This document shows, piece by piece, positions 9,882-53,854 of a stretch of DNA of 64,000 bases. The notes beneath the pieces are model-generated. The model saw only the letters and a program-made list of their open reading frames with translations, was not told where the DNA came from and did not search any database. Numbering within the stretch: the stretch's first letter is position 1; every line of letters starts with the position of its first letter. The translations under genes and the position numbers were made by a program. Source of the DNA: Pseudodesulfovibrio alkaliphilus (GTDB taxonomy: Bacteria; Desulfobacterota; Desulfovibrionia; Desulfovibrionales; Desulfovibrionaceae). The stretch is from positions 186,001 through 250,000 of the forward strand of contig NZ_WODC01000003.1 of the NCBI RefSeq assembly GCF_009729555.1, read 5' to 3'.

Positions 9882-9949
9882 GGACGGCGAACGGGCGCGA
9901 CAGGAGCCCAATGAGGCGAAACAGGCCAGGGAATCCCTCTTGACAGGGG
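9882..9949 (-). promoter_or_regulatory. Shared bipartite phage-block promoter, copy B (lysis pair)
   Basis: Read on the minus strand, box 1 is CCCCTGTCAAGAGGGATTCC (5' end 9949) and box 2 is CGCCCGTTCGCCGTCC (9897-9882). TGTCAA to CGCCCGTT is 48 bp, start to start. Box 2 ends 69 bp before the holin-like start codon. The spacing and both boxes recur at the tail block, the head block and the 53.9-kb locus. Confidence 0.75.
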
Positions 9950-9975
9950 CCGGGACCAAGGCGACTCTGCGCCCC

Positions 9976-11070
9976 ATGCAGACCGGAGACGACACCTCGC
10001 CCCAAGACCCTGGCCCGGACAGCTCGCCGGGTATCCAGGCGGAGCTGGCCGACCGGCTGGTCCGCCCCCTGACCCTCCGGGGACGCATGGCGGCCAACCG
10101 GCTCTGGCTGGCACCCATGGCCGGGCTGGGGCATGTGGCCTATCGCGAGGTACTCGGCCACTACGGCGGCTGCGGCCTGGCCTTTACCGAAATGTGCTCG
10201 GCGCGGGCCCTGCCCACGGAGAATTCCAGGGTTTCGCCCGTGTTCCGCTGGCGCGAGGCAGAGCTTGGCTCCCTGGTCTGCCAGGTGGCCGGGGCAGAGC
10301 CGGCCGAGTTGGCCCTGGCCGCACGGCGCGTGGAGGACGAGGGGTTTTTCGGCGTGGACATCAACATGGGCTGCGCGGTGCCCGGCATTGTCAAAAAAGG
10401 CGCGGGCGCGGCCCTGCTGCGCGATCACGACGCGGCTCTGGCAGCCCTCGAGGCGGTCCGCACCGCGGTTTCCATCCCGGTCTTCGTCAAGTTCCGCACC
10501 GGCTGGTCTCCCGAGGTGGAACCGGCTGTGGCCCTGGCCCGGCGCTTTGAATCGGCCGGGGCGGACTGCCTGATCTTCCATCCCCGCGTGGCCCCGGACA
10601 AACGCACCCGGCCGCCCAGACGCGACCACATCCGGGCCGTGGCAAAAGCCGTCTCCATCCCGGTCATGGGCAACGGCGACGTTGTCACGCCCGAAGACTG
10701 CCTGGACATGCTCCGCTCCACAGGCTGCGCAGGCGTGTCCATTGGCCGGATGGCCATTGCCCGGCCCTGGCTCTTCGCCGAGTGGACCGGCGGCGATCTG
10801 CCCGCCGAGGTCCTGGAGGGCGAAGGCTTTCGCGACTACGCCCTCCGGCTGGCCGAGGCCCTGGACAACCACTTCGACCCTGTCCGGGCGCTGAAGCGCT
10901 TCAAGCTCTTCACCATCTATTTCGCGGCCAACTTCACCTACGGCCATGCGCTACAATCGCGCTTCCTGGCGGCCAGGAGCATGGCCGAGGTGCGCGAGGC
11001 GGCCCGCGCCCATCTGACGCCCGGACTGCGGTTGGCCCGGCGGCCCAACATGAACCTCTTCAACATCTGA
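9976..11070 (+). CDS. tRNA-dihydrouridine synthase
   Basis: 364 residues (an ATG at 10087 could also start the core). The TIM-barrel flavoprotein signature is present: LAPMAGLGHVAYR at the start of the barrel, and INMGCAVPGIVKKGAGAALL carrying the catalytic cysteine that protonates the uridine C5. KFRTGW, FHPRVAPDK and GNGDVVTPEDC make up the FMN/phosphate-binding parts. It reduces specific uridines in tRNA using NADPH and FMN. The closest family by eye is DusB-like. The start lies 27 bp from box 1 of the divergent phage promoter. The cyclase-family gene follows after 20 bp, so they may be co-transcribed. Confidence 0.88.
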   Translation: MQTGDDTSPQDPGPDSSPGIQAELADRLVRPLTLRGRMAANRLWLAPMAGLGHVAYREVLGHYGGCGLAFTEMCSARALPTENSRVSPVFRWREAELGSLVCQVAGAEPAELALAARRVEDEGFFGVDINMGCAVPGIVKKGAGAALLRDHDAALAALEAVRTAVSIPVFVKFRTGWSPEVEPAVALARRFESAGADCLIFHPRVAPDKRTRPPRRDHIRAVAKAVSIPVMGNGDVVTPEDCLDMLRSTGCAGVSIGRMAIARPWLFAEWTGGDLPAEVLEGEGFRDYALRLAEALDNHFDPVRALKRFKLFTIYFAANFTYGHALQSRFLAARSMAEVREAARAHLTPGLRLARRPNMNLFNI

Positions 11071-11090
11071 TCGGTCCGAGGTGCCCAGCC

Positions 11091-11738
11091 ATGCGAGCCA
11101 TAGACCTCTCCCACATCATCGAGACGGGAATGCCCGTGTACCCCGGCGACGAGGCCACGGAAATCCGCTGCACCGCCGAGATCCATCAAGACGGCTACGC
11201 CCAGACCTCCCTGGCCATGACCTGCCACGCGGGCACTCATGTGGACATCGCGGCCCACGCCTTTGCCGACGCACCCGGCCTGGACCGCCTCGGCCCCGGC
11301 AATTTCACGGGCTGGGGCGCGGTGGTGGACCTGACCGGCCTGACCGGGGGCACGGATTCCGGGCTGCGAATAGACCAGACCCATCTGGCCCGGCTGGCCG
11401 ACATGGACGGACTCGACTTCGCGCTCTTGCGCACCGGGTGGGACGCCCGCTGGGGCCGCGACGGATATTATCGCGACTACCCCACCCTGACCGCCACGGC
11501 CTGCCGCTTCCTGGCCGGGCTCGAACTCAAGGGAGTGGGCCTCGACACCCCCTCGCCCGATCCTGTGAACGGGACCACGGAGGCCCACGCCATCCTCCTG
11601 AACCACGGACTGATCATCGTCGAAAACCTGCAAAACCTCGGCGAACTCCCGCCGGAGGGCTTTCTCTTCTGCTGTCTGCCCCTGCGCATCCGCAACGGCG
11701 AGGGCTCTCCCGTCCGGGCCACGGCTCTGGTCTTCTAA
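11091..11738 (+). CDS. Cyclase-family metal hydrolase (kynurenine formamidase-like)
   Basis: 215 residues. The family motif HAGTHVDIAAH (about 43-53) supplies the metal-binding His/Asp residues (HxGTHxDxxxH). Further conserved parts are LLRTGWDARWG and GVGLDTPSPDP. Members hydrolyse amides or lactones such as N-formylkynurenine; there is no tryptophan-degradation neighbour, so the substrate is unknown. It probably shares a transcript with the upstream dihydrouridine synthase. Confidence 0.82.
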   Translation: MRAIDLSHIIETGMPVYPGDEATEIRCTAEIHQDGYAQTSLAMTCHAGTHVDIAAHAFADAPGLDRLGPGNFTGWGAVVDLTGLTGGTDSGLRIDQTHLARLADMDGLDFALLRTGWDARWGRDGYYRDYPTLTATACRFLAGLELKGVGLDTPSPDPVNGTTEAHAILLNHGLIIVENLQNLGELPPEGFLFCCLPLRIRNGEGSPVRATALVF

Positions 11739-11898
11739 GCCGACAGGCCGGAAAAAAAGCTCCAGACATGACGCACGGCCCCTCGGCCGACCACCCTCAT
11801 CCTTTGTTTTCCCGGACACTGCCCTGTTCGGCAAAACCCATGTCATGGCGCTGGATTAATCGGCCCGGCAGGCATATACCTGCTGCCGGAGCACCATC

Positions 11899-52727: not shown

Positions 52728-53240
52728 ATGCACATAGCCATACCCAAGGTCCCCGGCCAGTCCCCCAGGGAAAAAATCATCCGCGCCCTCGCCCTGGTCC
52801 TGATCTTCGCCCTGGTGGCCTGGGCCTTTGTCAAGAACAACGAGCGCGTGCTGGACACCCTCAGCCGCCAGGGCACGGTCTATGACGAAACCGGCATCCT
52901 CACCGAGGAGCAGCGCAAGTTCATCGTCTCCTTTGCCCGCGCCCTCAAGGAGGAGTTCGGCATGAGCTGCCGGGTGCAGATTTTCGGCGGCGACTTTGTG
53001 GTCCCTGCGCTGGACGCCAAGACCATGTACATGGGTCTGGCCCCGGCCATCGGCAGCGTGGAGCTGCGCTTCCCCCCCATGATGAGCCGCGCCCTCGGCG
53101 CCGACTTCATCGAATCCCTCAAAACGGAGTCTCTCTTGCCCGCACTTGCCACCGACGAATGGCCCATGGAAATCCAGATGGCCCTGGCCGCCATCTACGA
53201 AAAACTGACCGGCCTTGAAGGAGACGAGCCCGGTGAGTAG
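52728..53240 (+). CDS. Membrane-anchored TPM-domain protein
   Basis: 170 residues. An N-terminal membrane helix (ALALVLIFALVAWAFV) precedes a TPM-like domain that starts VYDETGILTEEQRKFIVSFA, the usual opening of TPM phosphatase-like domains, followed by LKEEFGMSCRVQIFGGDF. The domain functions in photosystem repair in plants and is uncharacterised in most bacteria. A gaggag site precedes the ATG. The rnhA start overlaps its 3' end by 8 bp. Confidence 0.65.
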   Translation: MHIAIPKVPGQSPREKIIRALALVLIFALVAWAFVKNNERVLDTLSRQGTVYDETGILTEEQRKFIVSFARALKEEFGMSCRVQIFGGDFVVPALDAKTMYMGLAPAIGSVELRFPPMMSRALGADFIESLKTESLLPALATDEWPMEIQMALAAIYEKLTGLEGDEPGE

Positions 53241-53715
53241 CCGCGTGACCATATACACAGACGGCTCCTGCCTGGGCAATCCCGGTCCGGGCGGCTACGG
53301 CGCAGTCCTCATCCACGGCGAGTACAAGGGCATGAACGCCCCCAACTACAAGGAACTCTCCCAGGGCTATCGCGACACCACCAACAACCGCATGGAACTG
53401 CGGGCGGTCATTGTCGGCCTCTCGACCCTGACCCGCCGCTGCGCCGTGGACCTGTGGACCGACTCCAAATACGTGCAGGAGGCCATCACCAAGGACTGGA
53501 TCGGCAACTGGCAGCGCAACGGCTGGAAGACCGCAGCCAAGAAGCCGGTCAAGAACCAGGACCTCTGGCAGCGGCTCATCCCGCTGATCGAGCGGCACGA
53601 TGTCACCTTTCACTGGGTCAAGGGCCATAGCGGCCATCTGCTCAACGAGCGCTGCGACGTTCTGGCCCGCACCGCCGCCGCAGGCCAGAACCTGCTGGAC
53701 GATACGGCCCCGTAA
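53233..53715 (+). CDS. rnhA: Ribonuclease HI
   Basis: 160 residues from a GTG at 53233. All four active-site acids are in place: Asp in IYTDGSCLGNPGPGG, Glu in NNRMELRAVI, Asp in LWTDSKYVQEAI and the final Asp in NERCDVLAR. The basic-handle-like segment KTAAKKPVKNQDLW and HWVKGHSGH are also present. It removes RNA from RNA:DNA hybrids. An earlier TTG is possible but less likely. Confidence 0.93.
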   Translation: MSSRVTIYTDGSCLGNPGPGGYGAVLIHGEYKGMNAPNYKELSQGYRDTTNNRMELRAVIVGLSTLTRRCAVDLWTDSKYVQEAITKDWIGNWQRNGWKTAAKKPVKNQDLWQRLIPLIERHDVTFHWVKGHSGHLLNERCDVLARTAAAGQNLLDDTAP

Positions 53716-53747
53716 CCCTTCTCGCCATCATCGCCACGCCAATGAAA

Positions 53748-53778
53748 CACGCCGACGCGAGGGGATGGCGTCGGCGTG
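53748..53778 (+). terminator. Hairpin terminator after rnhA
   Basis: Perfect 11-bp stem cacgccgacgc (53748-53758) and gcgtcggcgtg (53768-53778) with loop agggatg-like sequence and no T run. It separates rnhA from the next promoter, 8 bp downstream. Confidence 0.6.
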
Positions 53779-53786
53779 TCCGGCAT

Positions 53787-53854
53787 CCCCTGTCAAGCGG
53801 ACTTCTTCGCCCTATGCACTCCTTTCCTGTCCTGCCGCGCCCGTTTTCCGTTCC
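53787..53854 (+). promoter_or_regulatory. Shared bipartite phage-block promoter, copy F (53.9-kb locus)
   Basis: Box 1 CCCCTGTCAAGCGGACTTCT from 53787 and box 2 CGCCCGTTTTCCGTTCC (53838-53854). TGTCAA to CGCCCGTT is 47 bp, one less than at the other three loci. Box 2 ends 81 bp before the ATG, as at the tail block (80 bp). The same aaggagac ribosome-binding site follows. Confidence 0.7.

What the first reader, a model, noticed from the sequence alone, without database searches (positions are those of the whole stretch)
9882..53854. Four separated loci share one bipartite promoter: a phage-derived regulon
The sequence shows two conserved boxes before the lysis pair (9882-9949, minus), tail block (18846-18912, minus), head block (36962-37029, plus) and a 53.9-kb locus (53787-53854, plus). 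Box 1 is CCCTGTCAA followed by an AGG-like half; its best copies are near-palindromic (CCTGT-CA-ACAGG). Box 2 is CGCCCGTT(C/T)(T/G)CC(G/A)T(C/T)C. TGTCAA to CGCCCGTT is 48, 48, 48 and 47 bp. Each set lies before a phage-like gene in the transcription direction, at similar distance from the start, and three share the ribosome-binding site aaggagac. Inference: one activator or dedicated factor switches on all blocks together.
Basis: seen in the sequence. Interest (0 to 1): 0.95.

Follow-up and report, generated by a model that had tools for sequence, protein, structure and literature searches.

The report
Scattered phage particle genes share promoter
A sulfate-reducing bacterium and its relatives keep the parts of a short-tailed virus particle in several separate places on the chromosome, each behind the same promoter, which in related species also sits in front of toxin-like genes; this looks like a virus turned into a tool of its host.

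Summary
All four sites are where stated, and the exact two-box pattern occurs only four times in the 3.22-Mb genome. The promoter is longer than described: a -10-like element follows at a fixed distance (TAnnnT at three sites, TATCCA at the fourth). A profile of it finds three more sites outside the window, before the major capsid gene, tail tubular protein A, and a second gene of the fourth locus's type. So 7 of 7 own-genome sites at E<1e-3 precede particle or cargo genes. Elsewhere: 63 of 64 examined sites in nine genus genomes (21 were training sites), and 32 of 37 in eight genomes of other genera, none used for the model. The blocks are a podovirus late module, contiguous in related viral contigs but split into five loci here, syntenic and under purifying selection. 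Best reading: a domesticated, GTA-like podovirus run as a regulon and, in the clade, armed. The activator, DNA transfer and toxin delivery are inferred, not shown.

The parts
9858..9949 (-). regulon promoter of the lysis pair (boxes, spacer, -10 TAGGCT)
   Evidence: profile R1 E=4.1e-18
9405..9812 (-). holin-like lysis gene 1 (135 aa)
   Evidence: phrog_2524 1.5e-8 for a longer frame, function unknown there; PF11351 GTA_holin_3TM only E=0.086, below cut-off
9196..9408 (-). lysis gene 2 (70 aa)
   Evidence: PF23831 below cut-off; conserved next to gene 1 in relatives
6860..8161 (-). large terminase (433 aa); no promoter site of its own found
   Evidence: PF03237 9.6e-10; phrog_2 7e-39; both scanned without the first residue
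6499..6873 (-). small conserved gene after the terminase (124 aa)
   Evidence: relatives of it follow both kinds of terminase
18822..18913 (-). regulon promoter of the tail block (-10 TAGCCT; box 1 is a full inverted repeat)
   Evidence: R1 E=6.4e-16
16669..18765 (-). tail tubular protein B (698 aa)
   Evidence: phrog_376 7e-174
16119..16610 (-). 163-aa tail-block protein, function unknown
   Evidence: syntenic in relatives
15154..16122 (-). tail fibre, podovirus fibre type by its N-terminal part (322 aa)
   Evidence: phrog_1640 6e-33 (longer frame); no Pfam match
14203..15150 (-). tail-associated protein with weak F5/8-type C match (315 aa)
   Evidence: phrog_17517 6e-14; PF00754 just below cut-off
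13755..14192 (-). tail fibre assembly chaperone (145 aa)
   Evidence: PF16778 2e-23
36960..37052 (+). regulon promoter of the head block (-10 TATGGT)
   Evidence: R1 E=6.4e-17
37261..37560 (+). first head-block gene (99 aa), family HEAD1
37562..39343 (+). portal / head-tail connector (593 aa)
   Evidence: PF12236 5e-153
39333..39563 (+). 76-aa head-block protein
   Evidence: syntenic
39560..40399 (+). scaffold-like protein (279 aa)
   Evidence: phrog_3742 3e-21 (unknown function), phrog_458 protease 9e-7; scaffold role inferred from position
53787..53875 (+). regulon promoter of the 53.9-kb locus (-10 TATCCA)
   Evidence: R1 E=7.7e-14
53940..54515 (+). MuF-like cargo gene; its reading frame is broken near 54,120-54,135, so two open pieces
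   Evidence: the gene at the same chromosomal place in G003 ends in an Ntox44 domain

Best explanation
The window holds part of a domesticated podovirus. Its late module (lysis, terminase, portal, scaffold, capsid, tail tubes, fibres) has been split into separate chromosomal loci between ordinary host genes. Each block sits behind a copy of one roughly 90-bp promoter: an inverted-repeat-like box CCCTGTCAAnAGG, a T/C-rich region with a degenerate CGCCC copy 21 bp upstream of the main box, the box CGCCCGTTnTCCnTCC in the -35 region, a conserved GAAAACCGGGG spacer and TAnnnT at -10. Shown: the promoter set, its gene content, its conservation, synteny and purifying selection. Inferred: the -35 region has no good consensus, so one activator bound upstream recruits the ordinary sigma-70 polymerase at all sites together, and the cells build podovirus-like particles and lyse. 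Because portal, capsid and terminase are kept while no contiguous phage genome was seen, the particle should package host DNA, i.e. act like a gene transfer agent. In relatives the same promoter also drives polymorphic cargo genes, so release is probably coupled to a toxin-like payload.
For: Promoter: 4 exact sites, reversed control 0; 7 sites E<1e-3; of 103 distinct site sequences 91 aligned with few gaps: T and A of the -10 in 91 of 91, last T in 84 of the 84 that reach it; local alignment favours well-matched ends. Gene content: (portal PF12236, capsid PF19821, terminase PF03237, tail tubes A and B, fibre, fibre chaperone). Regulon test: 63 of 64 sites in 9 genus genomes; 42 of 43 if the 21 training sites are left out; 32 of 37 in 8 genomes of other genera; 3 of 3 fetched in G020. 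Co-occurrence in the same 199 genomes: class-A portal in 35, promoter in 30 of those 35 and in 3 of the other 164. Upstream of portal genes: 18 of 21 loci with enough upstream sequence, 14 of them at E<1e-3. Domestication: conserved flanking host genes in 5 other genomes, dN/dS 0.06-0.40 for 8 particle genes against 0.23 and 0.36 for two neighbouring host genes. Viral contigs L195/L196 have the module contiguous and no promoter match in the part fetched. Concerted evolution of sites.
Against: No transcription, binding or particle data. No activator identified; PF20057 (DUF6456), by recall the GafA/GafZ family, is absent. No small terminase was recognised in the own genome, and the large terminase has no promoter site of its own. 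Five of 35 class-A portal genomes lack a promoter match at E<=1e-3 (G005, G016, G088, G116, G171); G005 shows a weak site when looked at directly and the two g20 genomes keep only the spacer/-10 part. Two of the 35 portals (G208, G140) have a stop inside. G020 has promoter sites but no portal match and only a fragment of tail tube B. 12 of 36 genus genomes show only 2-3 matches. In G023 one good site (L117) precedes no recognised family; an Lrp/AsnC-like frame follows. A short viral contig, L193, carries the promoter, and L194 and L198 partial matches. The model was built from pattern-selected sites, so invariance of its two 8-mers is by selection. The own-genome cargo gene at 53.9 kb has a broken frame. 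No tree was built.
Confidence: 0.75

Rival explanations
1. A decaying prophage: a late gene module broken by rearrangements whose several late promoters merely persist; nothing is made any more.
For: Cargo frame broken in the window; G020 keeps promoters but only part of the particle genes; stops inside the portal of G208 and G140; 12 of 36 genus genomes have 2-3 sites.
Against: The same blocks sit beside the same host genes in several genomes, open in the own genome and under purifying selection; one class-A portal copy each in 35 of 199 order genomes, all in five genera of one family; sites stay matched within a genome.
Confidence: 0.12
2. The particle is primarily an antibacterial weapon (a phage-derived payload carrier or a lysis-released bacteriocin system), not a DNA-transfer agent. 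This overlaps with the best explanation and is not exclusive of it.
For: 29 of 64 in-genus sites precede YD-repeat or MuF-like genes; five G001 copies have 91-95% identical cores, with tails 15-19% identical in 9 of 10 pairs; C-terminal Ntox44 and lysozyme domains; tail-class-specific downstream proteins.
Against: Terminase, portal and scaffold would be needless for a pure weapon; promoter-linked cargo genes found in the own genome are only two MuF-like ones, one with a broken frame; no evidence that cargo enters particles.
Confidence: 0.35
3. The shared promoter belongs to a helper or satellite relation: the loci answer to the activator of an incoming phage, as satellites do.
For: No activator was recognised among the genes behind the sites; IMG/VR holds relatives of the same portal, one short contig (L193) with the promoter.
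Against: The longer viral relatives L195, L196, L200 and L201 have no match to this promoter in the stretches fetched; the loci are syntenic, not mobile.
Confidence: 0.05
4. The boxes are chance or a common host regulatory motif.
For: Box 1 alone is not specific: 33 matches at up to 2 mismatches against 13 for the reversed control. The reversed exact pattern has one match in the 60 relatives searched (G029).
Against: The complete promoter is nearly confined to particle and cargo genes; in 199 genomes only two hits looked like chance, G083 and G149.
Confidence: 0.01

Closest known systems
RcGTA / CcGTA (Alphaproteobacteria) with activators GafA, GafYZ
   Same: Phage-derived particle genes in the host chromosome; GafA binds the promoters of the structural cluster, of its own gene and of the lysis cassette (PMC6363796, passages read). 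Works-like analogue of the regulon. Ectopic RcGTA loci for fibres, spikes and maturation are named in a passage of PMC6854486. GafYZ: search listing only (PMC9632790, PMC11150451).
   Different: Those are siphovirus-type (recalled) with one main head-tail cluster; here portal and tail-tube B are of podovirus type, capsid, portal, tail and lysis genes are all separated, and PF20057 is absent from the genome.
Dd1 of Desulfovibrio desulfuricans and compact podovirus-like islands of the genus Desulfovibrio
   Same: Same bacterial family; the compact islands L202, L203, L209 carry a related portal, a terminase homologous to the window's (E 3e-143 to 4e-131) and tail tubes A and B; portals of this type are PF12236.
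   Different: There one compact one-strand island; the class-A capsid HMM had no hit in those three, and no genome of that genus has a promoter match at E<=1e-3. That these islands are the Dd1 island (Ddes_0703 onward, PMC5701242; Ddes_0720 as small terminase, PMC6854486; passages read) is inference; ATCC 27774 itself was not examined.
FpGTA of Faecalibacterium
   Different: Gram-positive host; no shared promoter set or polymorphic cargo mentioned in the passages read; sequences not compared.
HTVC010P-like podoviruses (Pelagibacter) and related Vibrio phages
   Same: Best-scoring named phage portals (Pelagibacter, 42-44% in the 15 records listed of 254) and, for the capsid, Pelagibacter and Vibrio phages (33-42% in the 15 listed of 80).
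   Different: Free phages. The module is contiguous in related viral contigs L195 and L196, without this promoter in the part fetched.
MuF and RHS polymorphic toxins
   Same: Constant N-terminal part, variable C-terminal toxin-like domain, immunity-like neighbour; MuF toxins tied to temperate phages (PMC5576092, abstract read).
   Different: Here scattered through the chromosome and tied to the particle by promoter, not by linkage; MuF similarity is below the Pfam cut-off.

Membership tests
Gene transfer agent | head, tail, portal and large terminase genes present and open | tested here: met
   window and L080
Gene transfer agent | kept in place in related species under purifying selection, no contiguous phage genome | tested here: met
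   synteny, dN/dS; of 10 window proteins scanned 8 are ordinary host genes, 1 is the lysis gene, 1 a CI/S24 regulator. No tree built; replication and integration genes were not searched genome-wide
Gene transfer agent | packages random host DNA and transfers it | not testable with these tools
   needs particles
Gene transfer agent | small terminase without DNA-binding domain | tested here: inconclusive
   none recognised in the own genome, no dedicated search made; small-terminase genes in other genera (phrog_4044)
RcGTA-type GTA | GafA/GafZ-type activator (PF20057, assignment recalled) | tested here: not met
   0 matches in the own genome; control rings in Caulobacter
RcGTA-type GTA | siphovirus-type particle genes (recalled) | tested here: not met
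   podovirus-type portal and tail-tube families
Dd1-type compact island | single compact one-strand cluster | tested here: not met
   blocks separated by host genes
Tailocin | tail without capsid or packaging genes | tested here: not met
   capsid, portal and terminase present
MuF polymorphic toxin (53.9-kb gene type) | MuF domain (PF04233) above cut-off | tested here: inconclusive
   only L036, a YD protein, matches: 17.3 bits against cut-off 29.6; L033, L081 and the window piece have no PF04233 match
MuF polymorphic toxin (53.9-kb gene type) | variable C-terminal toxin domain | tested here: met
   L033 ends in Ntox44, 32.3 bits against 24; L081 and the window piece have no toxin match
RHS/YD polymorphic toxin (cargo in relatives) | YD shell, constant core, variable tail, immunity-like neighbour | tested here: met
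   PF25023 above cut-off in 6 of 6 YD proteins scanned; tails and neighbours (neighbours compared by eye); toxicity untested

The most novel reading that the evidence does not exclude
A new kind of interbacterial system: a domesticated podovirus particle and an open-ended arsenal of polymorphic toxin/immunity modules that are not linked on the chromosome, but are bound into one weapon by a shared activator-dependent promoter, so that new payloads join by acquiring the promoter. The particle would carry or be released with RHS, MuF-like and lysozyme-type payloads.
Probability: 0.3. Interest if true: 0.93.

Novelty: new variant of a known kind. Interest (0 to 1): 0.86.

Why it matters
It gives a bacterial lineage outside the Alphaproteobacteria a defined, searchable, multi-locus GTA-like system recognised by its promoter rather than by a gene cluster; a search for gene clusters would see only fragments. 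It shows possible stages of domestication side by side: contiguous viral module, capsid and portal block still joined (G016), fully split. And it ties polymorphic toxin-like genes to a phage particle by regulation, which makes the question of how such proteins leave the cell testable.

Tried and rejected
A palindrome in the -35/-10 spacer (which would suggest a MerR-type activator) was scanned over 86 distinct spacers without a proper background model and gave no clear signal: not claimed. Box 1 alone as a regulon finder: unspecific. A long degenerate pattern with 3 mismatches gave 0 matches. PF20057: absent. The CI/S24 regulator at 62535-63257 was considered as the switch; nothing links it to the sites. 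Biopython's dN/dS stopped with a domain error for 5 of 11 genes and its values were dropped; a script of my own gave the reported values for 10 genes, and the 124-aa gene (only: 0.42) was left out there. Searches on 'gene transfer agent' with Dd1/Desulfovibrio, Pseudodesulfovibrio, podovirus, Rhs, GafA, GafYZ and regulon, and on MuF and on Rhs with prophage/podovirus, showed in their listings no description of this system; only those searches support the statement that it was not found in print. The library lacks most subscription papers, and a listing shows titles and the start of abstracts only.

Dropped rows: of 45 promoter matches in the eight other-genus genomes 37 were fetched; a further match inside L146 was not counted. 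The five not assigned are L130, L148, L150, L151, L157 (L151 and L157 at contig ends). Of the 32 assigned, five rest on a terminase-like family whose Pfam matches are below cut-off, and L126 and L149 on weak YD matches (E 4e-5 and 1e-4). In the portal count four of the 18 are at E 0.0011-0.0061, three of these matching only the upstream 33-44 positions; some of these genomes were also used for the model. In the site-similarity test 3 of 30 sites were left out because TGTCAA was not found at the expected place.
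Full report
OBSERVATION. The two boxes are at all four places, on the stated strands, with TGTCAA-to-CGCCCGTT of 48, 48, 48 and 47 bp. In the whole own genome the exact pattern occurs four times, all in this window; the pattern read backwards occurs 0 times. The conserved stretch is longer than reported: after CGCCCGTTnTCCnTCC come 16-17 bp and a -10-like element at all four sites, TAnnnT at three and TATCCA at the fourth.

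WHAT THE BLOCKS ARE. Lysis pair 9196-9812 (minus), large terminase 6860-8161 (minus, PF03237), tail block 13755-18765 (minus: tail tube B, fibre, fibre chaperone), head block 37261-40399 (plus: portal PF12236, scaffold-like protein), and a MuF-like gene from 53940 whose frame is broken. Capsid and tail tube A lie left of the window at C3:175544-176374 and C3:170295-170879 (L080). Ten window proteins were scanned: one is lysis gene 1, eight are ordinary host genes between or beside the blocks (Dus, two GGDEF proteins, a glycosyltransferase, RlmN, RNase E/G, RNase H, an ABC transporter), and one is a CI/S24 regulator.

THE PROMOTER AS A REGULON MARK. A sequence-only profile (R1) from 32 sites found by the exact pattern gives seven own-genome sites at E<1e-3 (4e-18 to 2.6e-4), then 0.02 and 0.22. 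The three new ones precede tail tube A, the major capsid gene and a second MuF-like gene. All 36 genomes of the genus searched have matches at E<=0.01, 2 to 25 each. In stretches fetched from nine of them 64 sites were examined (the four window sites not among them) and 63 precede one of these families: capsid 6, tail tube A 6, tail tube B 6, lysis 5, head/portal block 5, MF(D/E/K)FGK proteins 6, YD-repeat or MuF-like 29. The one unassigned is L117. Of the 64, 21 were training sites; without them it is 42 of 43. In 199 genomes of the order 33 have a match at E<=1e-3: 23 in the genus, 9 in other genera of the family, 1 outside it. From eight of the other-genus genomes, none used for the model, 37 of 45 sites were fetched: 23 precede the same families by HMM, 5 a terminase-like gene of another kind (Pfam matches below cut-off; it follows a small-terminase gene in G153), 2 a small-terminase relative, 2 weakly YD-like genes; 5 are unassigned. 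The hits in G083 (no fitting gene) and G149 (before a murA-like frame, recognised by eye) look like chance.

CO-OCCURRENCE. In the same 199 genomes a close portal (class A, E<=4.3e-262; the next match is 1.9e-149) occurs in 35, one copy each, two of them with a stop inside; 30 of the 35 have the promoter and 3 of the other 164 do. Looked at directly, G005 has a weak site, the two g20 genomes keep only the GAAAACCGGGG-TAnnnT part, and G016 has capsid, the 83-aa gene and the portal block joined. G020, without a portal match, has the three sites fetched before tail tube A, a fragment of tail tube B and a YD gene. Upstream of portal genes in named genomes a match was within 700 bp in 18 of 21 loci with at least 440 bp upstream: 14 at E<1e-3, four at 0.0011-0.0061 (three of these partial). 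Misses are L178, L185, L189; four loci were cut too short to count.

ORIGIN AND DOMESTICATION. The best-scoring named phages are Pelagibacter podoviruses such as HTVC010P (portal 42-44%) and, for the capsid, Pelagibacter and Vibrio phages (33-42%; also a Dunaliella virus record, 34%); an unnamed 5-kb faecal phage fragment is nearer (54.8%). In the 13.6 kb fetched of viral contig L195 portal, capsid and tail tubes A and B (by HMM), with terminase, holin-like and 83-aa genes (by eye), follow each other on one strand; L196 shows the same for portal block, capsid and tube B. Neither has a promoter match. Of 10 viral contigs, L193 has a full match and L194 and L198 partial ones; whether these are chromosome fragments was not tested. 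A contiguous module with a class-A-type capsid also lies in G148, a genome of another genus without a promoter match (L207). In the bacteria the blocks sit beside the same host genes: Dus beside the lysis block in four other genomes, a small gene upstream of the tail block in four, a nuclease-like and an MBL-like gene (by eye) beside the capsid in five. dN/dS between the window genome and G003 is 0.06-0.40 for eight particle genes, 0.23 and 0.36 for two host neighbours.

CARGO. Seventeen YD proteins end their core in DPxGL, at residue 301 in 15 of them, followed by a tail of about 90-145 aa; the tails fall into 8 classes. Five copies in G001 have cores 91-95% identical; nine of ten tail pairs are 15-19% identical and one, L023/L098, 49%. 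The six members of the largest tail class are each followed by a protein of 166-194 aa that looks alike and membrane-bound by eye, like an immunity gene. A CxxC...HPNCKC segment of the MuF-like proteins recurs at the C-terminus of a YD protein, L036. At the place of the window's 53.9-kb gene, G003 has a MuF-like gene with another C-terminus, Ntox44. Of three MF(D/E/K)FGK proteins scanned, L101 ends in a phage lysozyme domain, L031 matches tail-lysozyme and endolysin PHROGs (Pfam transglycosylase below cut-off), and L100 has no match.

HOW IT PROBABLY WORKS. Shown: a shared promoter with a -10, gene content, conservation, selection. Inferred: no good -35 hexamer, so an activator is needed. Site likeness is 0.658 within a genome, 0.600 for orthologous sites between genomes and 0.572 for neither; shuffles reach the within-genome excess in 0 of 2000 and the same-gene excess in 11 of 2000. 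That fits one trans-acting factor per genome, though base composition may contribute. Its identity is unknown; PF20057 is absent. Particle genes without a contiguous phage genome point to packaging of host DNA; not shown.

AGAINST KNOWN SYSTEMS. RcGTA's GafA binds the structural, lysis and its own promoters (PMC6363796, passages), so a regulon-driven GTA is known in kind. What differs is the podovirus origin, the split of head, tail and lysis genes, the host group and the cargo. Compact podovirus-like islands exist in genus Desulfovibrio (genus from names) and fit the putative Dd1 island (PMC5701242, PMC6854486, passages); the class-A capsid HMM had no hit in L202, L203 or L209. [quoted passage not shown] Dd1's short-tailed morphology is recalled, not read here.

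Noticed in passing
   Followed up: partly
window 62535-63257 (+): CI-type helix-turn-helix with S24 autoprotease domain (PF07022, PF00717), 8 kb right of the fourth site; possible regulator, no link tested.
   Followed up: no
L160:11994-13412, L163:11261-12622: In other genera a different, GSGKST-type terminase-like gene (Pfam below cut-off) sits behind the shared promoter: apparent replacement of the packaging motor within a conserved regulon.
   Followed up: partly
window 53940-54515: The cargo gene of the window genome has a broken reading frame near 54,120-54,135 while its promoter is intact.
   Followed up: partly
L217:3-1101: G016 keeps capsid, 83-aa gene and portal block adjacent, perhaps an intermediate stage of the splitting.
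   Followed up: no
L207:1-15000: Contiguous prophage-like region in G148 with class-A-type capsid, portal, terminase and tail tubes, no promoter match in that genome at E<=1e-3.
   Followed up: no
L130:1901-2470 (-), L150:415-1158 (+): Another protein type behind the promoter (MET(E/S)xxDxRxWTRV...), no Pfam match for L150; possibly a further cargo family.
   Followed up: no
window 1340-6343 (-): 1667-aa protein beside the terminase in several relatives; no promoter site of this kind found before it.
   Followed up: no
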